This document shows positions 31,845 to 56,719 of a stretch of DNA of 64,000 nt, one piece after another (position 1 is the first letter of the stretch; every line of letters starts with the position of its first letter). The notes under the pieces are model-generated. The model was given only the letters and a program-made list of their open reading frames with translations. It was not told the origin of the DNA and did not search any database. This DNA is from Ochrobactrum vermis (GTDB lineage Bacteria > Pseudomonadota > Alphaproteobacteria > Rhizobiales > Rhizobiaceae): contig NZ_PCOC01000002.1 in assembly GCF_002975205.1 (NCBI RefSeq), forward strand, positions 1,801,501-1,865,500. The letters are read 5' to 3'. A program made the translations under genes and the position numbers.

Positions 31845-32147
31845 ATGACAGCGACAAGCAAGATAACGACAACGCATTTACCGGCAACGAGCGGACCGAC
31901 CTCCACGTTCGCGCAGATGGTGAAGGCCACATTTACGTCGATCATGCGTCGCTGGACGTTTTCCAATGGTCGGCGACAACTACTGAACCTGAGTGATTTT
32001 GACGATCACATGCTGCGCGATATCGGGCTCCGCCGAGAAGATATTTACACAGCGGTTCACTATCGCGGCATGGAGGACCCGACCCAGGTCCTCAGTGAAC
32101 TCGCAGATGCCCGCCTTCGGATCAAAGCGACGCGCCAGATCTGCTGA
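31845..32147 (+). CDS. DUF1127 domain protein
   Basis: 100 aa with the DUF1127 core LNLSDFDDHMLRDIGLRREDI (residues 46-66 approximately) after a polar, Thr-rich N-terminus and an RRW helix. The C-terminal extension (AVHYRGMEDPTQVLSELADARLRI) is longer than the minimal 45-aa family members. AGGAG precedes ATG by 8 bases. Small DUF1127 proteins are linked to RNA turnover (CcaF1) and stress in alphaproteobacteria. A C-rich-loop terminator lies downstream. Confidence 0.88.
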   Translation: MTATSKITTTHLPATSGPTSTFAQMVKATFTSIMRRWTFSNGRRQLLNLSDFDDHMLRDIGLRREDIYTAVHYRGMEDPTQVLSELADARLRIKATRQIC

Positions 32148-32591: not shown

Positions 32592-32936
32592 AATCTTCTT
32601 TTCTTCATAAAAAATTAGAAGAAAATGGCAAGTTAGGTCTTACCTCAACTTTTCTTTGTTGGATTCGACCAGACACAACTTCCAGGTATTCGGCTCTTTT
32701 GAAGACTTGTGCTTCCTGCGCACTAAAGACGACTGTGTGTCGTTGGCATTGCATTAAACCATTTTGAAACTGCGGCACGTACCGGATTTAAACATTACAA
32801 AAAATTCAGGTTCCACTCTTGAACTTGGCAACTGCATACACATTTGAAGAGATGCAGCGCCGGGCCCCTCTGGTCATGGTTTCCGCTATGGCGATGTCGG
32901 GGCTGCTCCACTTGTTCAAATGGAGATGGTCCGGCG
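32592..32936 (+). other. gene-poor interval upstream of the TerC gene
   Basis: About 345 bases between the tRNA and the TerC ATG. AT-rich at the tRNA side (TTCTTTTCTTCATAAAAAATTAG), then mixed composition. An open frame runs into it from the TerC gene but lacks a ribosome site and coding pattern. TerC genes are often preceded by a manganese riboswitch of the yybP-ykoY class; I looked and could not recognise its conserved core here. Confidence 0.4.
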
Positions 32937-53459: not shown

Positions 53460-54083
53460 TATAAACGAATATTTCCATCGAAAATTGTCGTTTCTTCGTC
53501 CTTCCACAGAAGACATTGCGGAAAATATAAACTTAAATTTCAATCAAATATGACGCTACGTAATGTATTATAATTTTATAATATATTTTGTTTAGTTAAA
53601 GGCACAACGTGTCTTGAGAAAAATAGAATGCTAGAGATCTTAATCATAATTCATTTTAAAATATACTTTTCGCAATGACCCCGCTTTCGTAGATGAATTG
53701 GAAAACTGCCGTGACTTTATCTGCACCAATCCAAGATTTGGATAAACAATGTGCATAACAAATTCAGCCCGCTCATTGAGCAACTTCACCAGCGCAAACG
53801 ATGAATGCACCCCGACAAAGCAATAGCTATTTTTCTGATCGCTTTCTTGCATCTTCGAACGCAGCCAGTTCGGGGCTGAAATGGTTCCGGCTGGAAACAC
53901 TTGAACACAAAAGTCTTGGAGGGTTCCGTTCAAAGGAACCGCCTCGCGTTTGGGCGGGGGGCTTAGGGGCGCGAGGCGGGCGAGCTCTCAGGAGTGCACG
54001 CACAGGGAAAATGGAACGTTAGCTCCGATTCTGGAACTAACAATACGTTCCAGCCTGAAAAATTACGTGACCATCATATAGAA
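53460..54083. other. AT-rich gene-poor interval with a G-rich-loop hairpin
   Basis: Bases 53460-53780 are clearly AT-richer than the rest of the window (for example TTATAATTTTATAATATATT at 53569). An open frame on the minus strand (53640-53933) has no ribosome site and no known domain. At 53939-53979 the stem CCGCCTCGCG / CGCGAGGCGG encloses a very G-rich loop (GGGCGGGGGGC). The reason for this structure is unknown. Confidence 0.45.
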
Positions 54084-54195
54084 AAGCCCGCAATGCTCGG
54101 GAGGAGGAGAGCATTGCGGGCTTAATCTGTAGCGCGATTGGGAGGAGGAGTATCGCGCCTGGAGTCCGGATCATGGGAGGAGGAGTGAACCGGAC
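54084..54195 (-). ncRNA. array of three CcsR/cuckoo-type small RNA hairpins (minus strand)
   Basis: Minus strand, 5' to 3': hairpin C (54195-54164; arms GTCCGG / CCGGAC plus 3 bp), hairpin B (54158-54132; GCGCGAT / ATCGCGC), hairpin A (54123-54084; 15-bp AAGCCCGCAATGCTC arms) ending in TTTTCTAT. Every loop contains TCCTCCTCCC. This is the anti-Shine-Dalgarno-like signature of the CcsR / cuckoo family, whose hairpins are processed from tandem precursors in alphaproteobacteria. No DUF1127 gene lies beside it. Confidence 0.88.
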
Positions 54196-54678
54196 GCATA
54201 TTTGATACCCCGTCCGCCCCGTTCTCTCAATCAACAAGCTTGCATTACTGATATGCAGTTTTAACAGGCTCAAATAGAAACCGCCTCGCGGCGAATGAAC
54301 GCGCTGAGGCGGCGAATCTCCTCCGAAAGCCCCAATCGAAGAAGATGATGGAACTTACCCACAGCTCCAGCGAAAATAAATAGACAATCTTCACACACAT
54401 TCGAAAATCCGGTGAACAATATCGTCCAGTGGTTGATAATCCTTTGATCAATCAAACCTTTACGCGTTTACGGCCCTCTTCACGAGAATTGATAAAGATC
54501 TGGTACATTTCAGCCTTGCAATATGCTCCTCAACGCCTTGTCAGAACGTGGAGATTAAAAGACCATTGCCTCATTAACGTACATAAATTTCAGTAATTTC
54601 TGAAAATTATAGAGTTCTATTAAGGGGTTGCTTTCTACATGAGCGGGGTTATTGTTCCTCTCACTTGGAGGAGGGAGT

Positions 54679-54720
54679 ACCGCCCCAGCGCGCTAGACCG
54701 CTGCGGGGCGGTTTCTTTTT
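54679..54720 (+). terminator. terminator of an unassigned transcript containing GGAGGAGGG
   Basis: ACCGCCCC / GGGGCGGT with inner AGCG / CGCT pairs and TTTCTTTTT after it. Immediately upstream (54666-54677) the transcript carries GGAGGAGGGAG, complementary over about 8 bases to the loops of the neighbouring hairpin arrays. No gene precedes it on this strand for over 600 bases. Confidence 0.75.
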
Positions 54721-54760
54721 CAGCCATCCAAAAATGCATATCTGCATTGCAGGATTGCCC

Positions 54761-54790
54761 CTTGTAAGTGGCCGCCCGTGCTCCTATTTT
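54761..54790 (+). promoter_or_regulatory. RpoH-like promoter of the plus-strand hairpin array
   Basis: CCCTTGTA (from 54759) and CCTATTT (54783-54789), about 18 bases apart, resemble the alphaproteobacterial heat-shock sigma consensus (CTTGAA with a CCTATNT-type -10). The expected start, near 54796, coincides with the base of the first hairpin (54797). The -35 is imperfect. Confidence 0.5.
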
Positions 54791-54796
54791 CACGTT

Positions 54797-54918
54797 GTTC
54801 GGTTTTACTCCTCCTCCCAAAAACCGAACTCAAAGCGCGATACTCCTCCTCCCAATCGCGCTTTACAGATCCGCCCACTGCACACTCCTCCTCCCAGTGC
54901 AGTGGGCGTTCTCTTTTC
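54797..54918 (+). ncRNA. array of three CcsR/cuckoo-type small RNA hairpins (plus strand)
   Basis: Hairpin D (54797-54829; GTTCGGTTTT / AAAACCGAAC), E (54832-54864; AAAGCGCGAT / ATCGCGCTTT) and F (54873-54907; GCCCACTGCAC / GTGCAGTGGGC, then TTCTCTTTTCT). The three loops are the same 13 bases, ACTCCTCCTCCCA. The core of E (54835-54861) matches hairpin B of the other array without mismatch, in inverted orientation. D and F match C and A in plan but have different, compensated arms. Strong CcsR/cuckoo signature. Confidence 0.9.
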
Positions 54919-55042: not shown

Positions 55043-56719
55043 ATGTCCTTCAGCACGATCTTCAAACCGGTCAGACCTTCGCTATTATGTTCTCCCCTGC
55101 TCTGGCTGGTTTGTGTTCTCATCCTGCTCGTCGCCCTTTTGTCATTCAGGCTCAGCGCTCCCATCGGGCCGATGTATTGGGACAGCTACATCTATTTCGA
55201 TGCGGCGCAGCGCATCAAAACAGGCCAGATTCCCAATGTGGATTTTTCAACGCCTGTCGGGCCGCTTGGTTATTATCTGTTTGCATGGGGACAATCATTA
55301 TTCCCGGAGGCACAACCGTTACTGCTCGTCCAATGGTCAATACTGGCCGTATCAGCACCATTAATGGCATGCGTACTGGCCGAACTTCAGCCCCAAAACC
55401 GGACGGTCGGCTTTCTTCTCCTCGTTCCATTTCTGGTTTTCGCGATCTTTCCAGCCAACACACAAAGCTTTTATCCCTATCCCGGACTGGACGGGTTCGG
55501 CATCTATAACCGCCATACATCGCTTCTGTTGTACGTGTTGATGTGTGGCCTGATGTTCATGCGAAACAGCGTGAGGCTCGCACTATTTTGCGCAGCAACG
55601 ATGCTCGCCCTGCTCTTGATGAAGGTGACGGGGTTTCTTACAGGAGGCTTATTCGGTCTAACGGCACTCCTGGCGGGACGCATCTCAACCCGCAATGTCA
55701 CACTGGCAACCGTCGTCACCCTTGCGGCTCTGCTGCTCCTTGAACTGCACAACGGGATTATCAGCGCATATAGTCGCGATATCACAACATTAATCGCGCT
55801 AAACGAAGAGGCTCTGCTCTCGCGTTTTCTTACCGTCATATCGCTGAAACTCGATGTCGTTTTACCGGCAGCGATCCTCATTCTTGCTCTTTTCTGGGGT
55901 GAACAGCGCCAACCCGGCGAACAAAGCCGTCTCTTTGATCGAAGCTCGGCCTGGCTTGCCATTGGCCTTTTGGGCGGCATCGTCCTTGAAACGCAGAACA
56001 CTGGCAGTCAGGAATTCATATTCCTTTGGCCCATTCTGCTCATGATCTTTCAGCGCCTGAAAACTGGCGACGAAAAGCTCAAGATCGCCTTCGTTGTGCT
56101 GGCCGCCTTTTGTGTCATTCCGACATTCACCAAGGTTGCACACCGAACCTTACGCGCCATCGCAGTCGCACCTACTTACGTCCAACCGTCTCTACCGGAA
56201 CTGAAAAATCTGGGACAAGTGTCGACCCGACCAGATTTCCTGCAGCGCGCGGAGCTTTTCGAAGCCCATTACCCGGAAAATAATGCAGCCTATGACGCGT
56301 TGGCAGCGCAAGGTCAGTTGCCAAGCTGGCAGCTTTATTCAGAAATCGATTTCCAGGTGTACTGGCTCGTTTCTGCAGAACAGATGGTGGAGGATTTGCG
56401 GGCCTTCGAGACACGAAACAACGTCCGCCTGCAAAGCATCATGTCGCTCGACTTCGTCAATCCGTTTGCATGGGTGTTGGACCGCGACGCCACGCGGCAT
56501 ATCCAGATCGGAGCTGACCCTTTCCGCACCGTCCCCGCTTTATCTGAGGAAGCGAAATCCGCCGTGGAAGCAACCGACGGCATATTGCGCCCGAAGTGTC
56601 CGGCGACGACCAACCGCCTCGCCTTGCAGAAAATATATGCCGAGGCGCTGCAAGATCGCACCGTTGTCGCTTTGAACCCCTGTTGGGATCTGCTCCTTCG
56701 TCCCGGCTTGCTTCCATAG
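55043..56719 (+). CDS. predicted GT-C-type membrane glycosyltransferase
   Basis: 558 aa, with an N-terminal helix (residues 18-36), about ten more helices to residue ~390 and a C-terminal soluble part. The first outer loop WDSYIYFDAAQRIKTGQIP then VDFSTPVGPLGYYLF is typical of GT-C enzymes that use polyprenyl-phosphate sugars, with candidate catalytic aspartates at 47, 53 and 67. ATG 55043 has GGGAG upstream; a longer frame from 54665 would translate the hairpin array and is rejected. It faces the polyprenyl-sugar operon, whose product it may use. No experimental homologue is named with certainty. Confidence 0.72.
   Translation: MSFSTIFKPVRPSLLCSPLLWLVCVLILLVALLSFRLSAPIGPMYWDSYIYFDAAQRIKTGQIPNVDFSTPVGPLGYYLFAWGQSLFPEAQPLLLVQWSILAVSAPLMACVLAELQPQNRTVGFLLLVPFLVFAIFPANTQSFYPYPGLDGFGIYNRHTSLLLYVLMCGLMFMRNSVRLALFCAATMLALLLMKVTGFLTGGLFGLTALLAGRISTRNVTLATVVTLAALLLLELHNGIISAYSRDITTLIALNEEALLSRFLTVISLKLDVVLPAAILILALFWGEQRQPGEQSRLFDRSSAWLAIGLLGGIVLETQNTGSQEFIFLWPILLMIFQRLKTGDEKLKIAFVVLAAFCVIPTFTKVAHRTLRAIAVAPTYVQPSLPELKNLGQVSTRPDFLQRAELFEAHYPENNAAYDALAAQGQLPSWQLYSEIDFQVYWLVSAEQMVEDLRAFETRNNVRLQSIMSLDFVNPFAWVLDRDATRHIQIGADPFRTVPALSEEAKSAVEATDGILRPKCPATTNRLALQKIYAEALQDRTVVALNPCWDLLLRPGLLP

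What the first reader, a model, noticed from the sequence alone, without database searches (positions are those of the whole stretch)
54084..54918. Two divergent arrays of three cuckoo/CcsR hairpins with compensatory stem changes
Six hairpins show a common C-rich loop (CTCCTCCTCCC in D, E, F, B and C, and TCCTCCTCCC in A). Hairpins B and E are a 27-base perfect inverted duplicate (54132-54158 and 54835-54861). C/D and A/F keep the same plan and order while their arms differ by matched changes on both sides (GTCCGG/CCGGAC versus GTTCGG/CCGAAC). This covariation is direct evidence for RNA structure. Known CcsR/cuckoo arrays usually follow a DUF1127 gene; here none is adjacent, and two divergent arrays face away from each other between minC and a glycosyltransferase gene.
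Basis: partly seen in the sequence, partly recalled or inferred. Interest (0 to 1): 0.85.

Follow-up and report, generated by a model that had tools for sequence, protein, structure and literature searches.

The report
RNA arrays with candidate decoy RNA
Two back-to-back copies of a known bacterial regulatory RNA that blocks ribosome-binding sites each sit behind a short RNA-gene-like element, at least one of which looks built to soak that regulator up, a possible off-switch that has not been tested.

Summary
The six hairpins are real. They form two divergent members of the known alpha-proteobacterial sRNA family ar14 (Rfam RF02344, 82.3 and 75.5 bits, cut-off 58.8), the family of S. meliloti NfeR1. 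CcsR1 is far below its cut-off. Covariation over 32 arrays is strong. Lack of a DUF1127 neighbour is ordinary. The pair is an inverted duplication seen in 10-11 of 35 genus genomes.

The new part lies between the arrays. A ~58-nt element, X (54662-54721 +), has its own conserved palindrome, -35, -10, 5' core ACUUGGAGGAG and terminator, with freely drifting spacers: the footprint of a separate small-RNA gene. It matches 31 of 35 genus genomes; 42 of 43 copies examined stand 75-232 nt upstream of an ar14-type loop. In 16 of 16 X variants tested the core complements the CCUCCUCCC loops over 7-9 nt, in two registers, against 5-6 nt for the 16S tail; the degenerate copy before the other array does so less clearly. 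Best reading: X is a genus-restricted decoy (sponge) for anti-Shine-Dalgarno sRNAs. Transcription and binding are untested.

The parts
54084..54123 (-). hairpin A (third hairpin and terminator of the - strand array), loop UCCUCCUCCC
54132..54158 (-). hairpin B, exact inverted duplicate of E
54164..54195 (-). hairpin C (first hairpin of the - strand array)
54081..54203 (-). ar14 sRNA (RF02344), 75.5 bits
54202..54230 (-). putative promoter of the - array, TTGAGA-N17-TATCAA; several relatives read TTGAG...TATTAA
   Evidence: read by eye, inference
54242..54254 (+). match to the published VtlR box GCAT-N3-TG-N3-T, upstream of the - array
54271..54333 (-). X', degenerate copy of element X upstream of the - array (42.7 bits to model R1)
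54588..54605 (+). 18-bp palindrome TTTCAGTAATTTCTGAAA upstream of X; 94.3% mean pairwise identity in 19 loci
54628..54655 (+). putative promoter of X: TTGCTT-N16-TATTGT
   Evidence: not found by the consensus scan
54662..54721 (+). element X, predicted ~58-nt RNA: 5' core (C)ACUUGGAGGAG (54662-54673) and intrinsic terminator (54679-54720)
54736..54748 (+). VtlR box match GCATATCTGCATT upstream of the + array
54761..54789 (+). putative promoter of the + array, CTTGTA-N17-CTATTT
   Evidence: read by eye, inference
54790..54912 (+). ar14 sRNA (RF02344), 82.3 bits
54797..54829 (+). hairpin D
54835..54861 (+). hairpin E, exact inverted duplicate of B
54872..54908 (+). hairpin F (third hairpin and terminator of the + array)

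Best explanation
The locus is two copies of one cassette in divergent orientation: [element X] - [LsrB/VtlR-type box and promoter] - [ar14 array]. Each array makes an NfeR1-like RNA with three unpaired CCUCCUCCC loops that pair with Shine-Dalgarno sequences of many mRNAs, above all transport and catabolic genes, and block translation. X is a separate short RNA gene whose 5' end (ACUUGGAGGAG in the window) mimics a strong Shine-Dalgarno sequence. Made from its own promoter under its own, probably palindrome-binding, regulator, it pairs with the loops of the arrays next to it, of the other ar14 arrays and possibly of the ar15 (AbcR-type) RNAs, and so releases their targets: a dedicated sponge encoded beside its prey. 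Shown here: hairpins and covariation, family membership, cassette architecture, the footprint of X, its genus restriction in the genomes searched, its complementarity. Inferred: transcription, regulators, array action in this organism (from S. meliloti NfeR1), and the sponge step.
For: Arrays: ar14 over cut-off; covariation. The NfeR1 mechanism (LsrB-activated, aSD seeds silence ntrB) is in the abstract and passages of PMC10746234. TTGGGAGGA, the loops' complement, occurs 61 times in the genome against 8 for the reversed control. 9 of the 61 are ar14-type loops; of the 52 others 51 were fetched and 33 precede a possible start codon. Of 28 of those proteins scanned, 6 are solute-binding and 4 MFS transporters. 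X: in 19 loci mean pairwise identity is palindrome 94%, -35 100%, spacer 49%, -10 97%, -10-to-core 40%, core 98%, terminator 92%, upstream flank 40%. Terminator pairs form in 99.4% of cells. X matches 31 of 35 genus genomes, best E 5.2e-4 or better in each. Of 43 copies examined (of 56 hits at E 0.0014 or better) 42 are 75-232 nt upstream of an ar14-type loop, 34 of those 42 with a VtlR-type box between. The longest exact complement to the loops is 7-9 nt in 16 of 16 X variants, against 5-6 nt for the 16S tail; the duplex energy is matched by 0-51 of 1000 shuffles per variant. The register changes between lineages (GGAGGAG(G) versus TGGGAGG(A)) while complementarity stays. In one genome X is intact with no array in the 901 nt fetched (L199), and in another about 145 nt more separates X from its array (L208): both argue for a trans-acting unit. 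The two ar15 RNAs of this genome also carry CCTCCTCCCA.
Against: No expression data. The core is only about half unpaired in predicted folds of 8 variants (0.41-0.67), partly against its own U tract. The invariant ACUU 5' of GGAGGAG is not explained by pairing with the loops. The six X' sequences tested (window, L180, L182, L183, L192, L195) have only 4-7 nt of complementarity, in 3 of the 6 no longer than to the 16S tail, and 13-231 of 1000 shuffles do as well, so the second X of a pair may have lost or changed function. A purine-rich 5' end also suits ribosome binding or a terminator's upstream tract. The box consensus is weak in itself: 15 matches in the window, 12.8 expected. Terminator covariation rests on 2 of 13 pairs, and two of five measures are reached by most shuffles (410 and 460 of 500). 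The promoter hexamers do not pass the tool's sigma-70 consensus. The 43 copies and 19 loci are related sequences, some nearly identical, and include the model's training rows.
Confidence: 0.55

Rival explanations
1. X is a transcription-attenuation leader of the array: transcription from X's promoter stops at X's terminator unless the terminator is opened, perhaps by ar14 RNA pairing with the core (autoregulation).
For: X is on the same strand and just upstream of an array in 42 of 43 copies examined; its terminator lies between X's promoter and the array.
Against: 34 of 42 cassettes have a box of their own after X's terminator, and promoter-like hexamers can be read there by eye; the distance varies (75-151 nt, 232 nt in L208); X is kept intact without an array in the stretch fetched in L199. 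No antiterminator pairing was searched for systematically.
Confidence: 0.17
2. X is an ordinary trans-acting sRNA whose 5' seed regulates mRNAs with CUCCUCCAAG-like sites; its neighbourhood to ar14 arrays is an accident of duplication.
For: The full ACUUGGAGGAG is nearly invariant in 19 loci, more than the loops need. CTCCTCCAAG occurs 12 times in the genome (one being X's own reverse strand) against 4 in the control, one in a perfect hairpin loop between two open frames (L268).
Against: The ACUU is changed in other X lineages (UCUUGGGAGG, CUCUGGGAGG) while loop complementarity is kept. The 11 other sites show no common context by a quick look.
Confidence: 0.15
3. X is only a transcription insulator (strong terminator) with a purine tract, or a decoy for ribosomes rather than for sRNAs.
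For: The terminator is the longest conserved part; the purine tract can pair weakly with the U tract; the core contains GGAGG.
Against: An insulator does not need a conserved promoter, palindrome and 5' core set off from the stem by a few drifting bases. The core matches the 16S tail over 5-6 nt but the loops over 7-9 nt. No start codon is conserved after the core, by inspection.
Confidence: 0.13

Closest known systems
ar14 / NfeR1 sRNA family (Rfam RF02344; S. meliloti Smr14C2 = NfeR1; SmelA075 group)
   Same: three hairpins with CCUCCUCCC loops and variable covarying stems; several copies per genome; many stand-alone genes; LysR-type (LsrB/VtlR) box upstream
   Different: two arrays face away from each other as an inverted duplication; each has an X-type element upstream, which was not found at the 30 family loci outside the genus nor in the family and order searches
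CcsR1-4 of Rhodobacter sphaeroides (RF02791) and the DUF1127-linked 'CIN1' loci (PMC10253847, passages)
   Same: same loop motif and hairpin-array plan
   Different: below the CcsR1 cut-off (27.7 and 23.5 of 65.3 bits); no DUF1127 gene upstream; three hairpins, not four RNAs
ar15 (RF02345); that this family is AbcR1/AbcR2 is recalled, not from a call
   Same: anti-Shine-Dalgarno loop CCUCCUCCCA in this genome's two copies; LsrB/VtlR regulon according to passages of PMC10746234 and PMC12595884
   Different: different overall structure; no X hit near them in this genome
sRNA sponges, for example the mRNA-derived sponge of GcvB (title in the reference lists of PMC8844928 and PMC7143759; its name SroC is recalled)
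   Same: an RNA that titrates an sRNA acting on transporter mRNAs
   Different: that sponge derives from an mRNA; X would be a stand-alone gene next to its prey and would work by mimicking a Shine-Dalgarno sequence

Membership tests
ar14 (RF02344) | covariance-model score over the gathering cut-off | tested here: met
   82.3 and 75.5 bits against 58.8
ar14 (RF02344) | three hairpins, each with an unpaired CCUCCUCCC loop and variable covarying stems | tested here: met
ar14 (RF02344) | LsrB-type box and sigma-70 promoter upstream, as for NfeR1 | tested here: inconclusive
   box upstream of both arrays and in 34 of 42 cassettes, but the consensus alone is not enriched in the window (15 found, 12.8 expected) and the promoters fail the consensus scan; no binding data
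ar14 (RF02344) | expressed; silences mRNAs through the aSD loops | not testable with these tools
   only supporting site statistics
CcsR / CIN1 locus | CcsR1 covariance-model score over cut-off | tested here: not met
   27.7 and 23.5 against 65.3 bits
CcsR / CIN1 locus | co-transcribed upstream DUF1127 gene | tested here: not met
   none in 600 nt upstream; nearest DUF1127 match in the window about 31971-32048
CcsR / CIN1 locus | RpoHI/RpoHII promoter | tested here: inconclusive
   the + array hexamers CTTGTA..CTATTT could be read either way; by eye only
sRNA sponge (element X) | complementary to the seed of an sRNA | tested here: met
   7-9 nt in 16 of 16 X variants; weaker in 6 X'
sRNA sponge (element X) | transcribed as a discrete RNA | not testable with these tools
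   promoter/terminator footprint only
sRNA sponge (element X) | binds and titrates the sRNA in vivo | not testable with these tools
   none
any known RNA family for X | match in Rfam 15 | tested here: not met
   no match over X or X' at E up to 1

The most novel reading that the evidence does not exclude
X is the founder of a new family of stand-alone Shine-Dalgarno-mimic RNAs: a dedicated, separately regulated decoy that travels with ar14 arrays and can switch off the whole cellular pool of anti-Shine-Dalgarno sRNAs (six ar14 arrays plus two ar15 RNAs here), with its binding register re-tuned in different lineages.
Probability: 0.4. Interest if true: 0.8.

Novelty: new variant of a known kind. 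Interest (0 to 1): 0.55.

Why it matters
Anti-Shine-Dalgarno sRNAs of the ar14 and AbcR kind control nutrient uptake in alpha-proteobacteria, and how such promiscuous RNAs are turned off is open: the authors of PMC8844928 write that their data set can be inspected further for AbcR1/2 sponges (passage). A conserved, gene-linked candidate with a predicted seed and promoter makes that directly testable. The arrays alone would be an ordinary new copy of a known family.

Tried and rejected
Considered and dropped: (1) CcsR membership: below cut-off. (2) 'Absence of DUF1127 is unusual': not so for ar14. (3) A conserved peptide in X: no conserved start codon by inspection. (4) X outside the genus: 7 of 199 family genomes match, 4 of them of this genus and 3 weak with no aSD motif in the 3 kb around (L171-L173); in a sample of 297 genomes of the order only this genome matches. 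Both searches used stricter filters that lose weak matches. (5) SD-like 7-mers within 700 nt upstream of ar14 arrays at 30 family loci: 2 of 30, at -263 to -266 and -661. (6) A different target with CTCCTCCAAG: 12 sites, no pattern. (7) Two regular-expression searches for DUF1127 failed on known positives and were replaced by tblastn. (8) Alignment A2 had wrong coordinates and was replaced by A3. (9) sigma-70 scan: 4 found in the region (2.2 expected), none of them a promoter named here.

Literature: the cuckoo-RNA paper (PMC4615179) is not held. Searches showed no description of X among the papers listed (lists are capped; e.g. 15 of 19 listed); the library holds open-licence papers only.

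Row choices: one search used 22 hand-picked sequences (16 X, 6 X') of the 43 hits, mostly leaving out near-duplicates; it took the better of two loop variants, included a few bases of the terminator stem, and its shuffles keep base composition only. Searches cover 43 of the 56 hits at E 0.0014 or better. A5 used 32 of 36 triple arrays found (L185, L190, L002, L003 left out). Of 52 non-array TTGGGAGGA sites 51 were fetched; of 33 with a possible start codon (some weak: TTG, short frames) 28 were scanned in Pfam, 4 of them without a match.

Full report
What was checked. An Rfam scan places each triple over the gathering score of ar14, RF02344 (82.3 bits at 54790-54912 +, 75.5 bits at 54203-54081 -; cut-off 58.8). 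At a permissive threshold CcsR1 appears far below its own cut-off.

Structure. In an alignment of 32 genus arrays, 96.3% of cells form standard pairs and 15 of 31 pairs show changes on both sides. Shuffles reach the observed values 0 of 500 times for four measures and 44 of 500 for the number of pair types; sliding the partners by 1-3 columns drops pairing to 28-44%. The rows include both window arrays and paralogues, so they are not independent events.

Genome context. The window's genome (contigs of 2.83, 2.30 and 0.27 Mb) has six ar14 loci over cut-off. DUF1127 genes are directly upstream of three. In 30 best-scoring loci of other genera of the family 4 have one within 600 nt by tblastn, in 29 genus loci 15; these are best-scoring loci, not a random sample. 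Of the 63 MinC loci in named records, scanned for the CCTCCTCCC motif, 9 show both arrays next to minC (Brucella pecoris, pseudintermedia, tritici (two records), daejeonensis, oryzae, cytisi, Ochrobactrum sp. CGA5 and one unnamed isolate), some with a degenerate hairpin. Only the + array is present in 5 (L017-L021), no array in the other 49.

Element X. Aligning these regions showed a block of very strong conservation, 54587-54722, upstream of the + array. It contains, in order, a palindrome, TTGCTTT, TTATTGT, CACTTGGAGGAGGGAGT, and a GC hairpin followed by TTTCTTTTT. A covariance model (R1, built from 8 rows) matches 31 of 35 genus genomes, at more than 60 bits in 29 (the training rows come from this genus). 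At family level 7 of 199 genomes match, 4 of this genus and 3 weak ones without an array nearby. In 297 genomes sampled from the order only this genome matches. In 19 clear loci identity falls and rises as expected for a gene: flank 40%, palindrome 94%, linker 61%, -35 100%, spacer 49%, -10 97%, -10-to-core 40%, core 98%, core-to-stem 73%, terminator 92%, U tract 87%.

Architecture. 43 X or X' copies were examined, of 56 hits at E 0.0014 or better. 42 of the 43 have an ar14-type loop 75-232 nt downstream on the same strand, and 34 of the 42 have a match, in either direction, to the published VtlR box GCAT-N3-TG-N3-T between X and the array (box from passages of PMC7486931). The box consensus alone is not rare. 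The window thus holds two whole cassettes in inverted orientation. By X hits this divergent arrangement is present in 10 of 35 genus genomes (G000, G016, G119, G122, G127, G128, G130, G137, G148, G152), and in G138 by its loops (L206). In five others (G124, G126, G142, G146, G149) the second cassette's X lies about 23 kb away on the same strand. Some of these G genomes have contigs of the same length as named records, so the two surveys overlap.

Complementarity. The longest exact complement of X's 5' region to the ar14 loop is 7-9 nt in 16 of 16 X variants tested, while the 16S tail gives 5-6 nt. For the window the duplex is 8 nt, -19.4 to -19.8 kcal/mol, reached by 1 of 1000 shuffles; over the 16 variants 0 to 51 of 1000. 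Two registers are used: GGAGGAG(G) in one group, TGGGAGG(A), with a further 5' base in some, in the other. Six X' sequences are weaker (4-7 nt; 13-231 of 1000 shuffles as good; 3 of 6 no longer than to the 16S tail). Predicted accessibility of the core is intermediate in 8 variants (0.41-0.67).

How it probably works. For the arrays the precedent is NfeR1: LsrB-activated, N-stress induced, silencing ntrB and transporter mRNAs through redundant aSD loops (PMC10746234, abstract and passages; PMC7143759, passages). In this genome the loops' complement TTGGGAGGA is strongly enriched (61 against 8 reversed), as a Shine-Dalgarno-like word would be. Of 28 downstream proteins scanned, 10 are transporters or solute-binding proteins; no genome-wide baseline was computed. 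For X the sponge reading explains the linkage, the own promoter, the placing of the core at the predicted 5' end, and the change of register with complementarity kept. It does not explain the invariant ACUU or the weak X'. In B. melitensis VtlR controls AbcR2 and three DUF1127 genes (PMC12595884, abstract and passages).

Novelty. The arrays are known in kind (PMC3927594, section read). X is not in Rfam 15, and the searches named in Tried and rejected showed no description of it in an open-licence library. A sponge RNA is a known kind; a stand-alone Shine-Dalgarno-mimic linked to aSD sRNAs would be a new variant.

Noticed in passing
window 53933-54003: A GC-rich hairpin block (GGAACCGCCTCGCG...CGCGAGGCGGGCGAGCTCTCAGGAGTGCACGC) is nearly invariant in the 14 named relatives aligned, single copy in the genome, no Rfam match; partial copies (79-90% over 39-62 nt) lie near the cassettes of L181, L184-L186, L194, L196 and L207.
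   Followed up: partly
L268:1490-1520 (G000:C1 about 375020-375050): Between two open frames, a perfect 8-bp hairpin shows CCTCCTCCAAG in its loop, an 11-nt complement of the X core and following bases; no Rfam match there.
   Followed up: partly
L008, reverse strand about 1535-1562; L007:1523-1563: Single hairpins with aSD-type loops (ACTCCTCCCA; CCTCCCTCCTCCC) shortly after what look by eye like the stop codons of a binding-protein gene and a glycine-rich-protein gene; weak ar14 hits (25.8 and 28.1 bits).
   Followed up: no
window 32852-32909: terC RNA (RF03067, 51.4 bits) about 260 bases after a tRNA; a DUF1127 match (33.4 bits) lies at about 31971-32048.
   Followed up: no
L208, between X (558-622) and the array (220-343): About 145 nt more than in relatives separates X from its array; in L021 an extra stretch sits at the same place, just after the terminator. 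Its nature was not looked up.
   Followed up: no
window 55043-56719: 558-aa protein next to the + array has no Pfam match at E 0.001.
   Followed up: no
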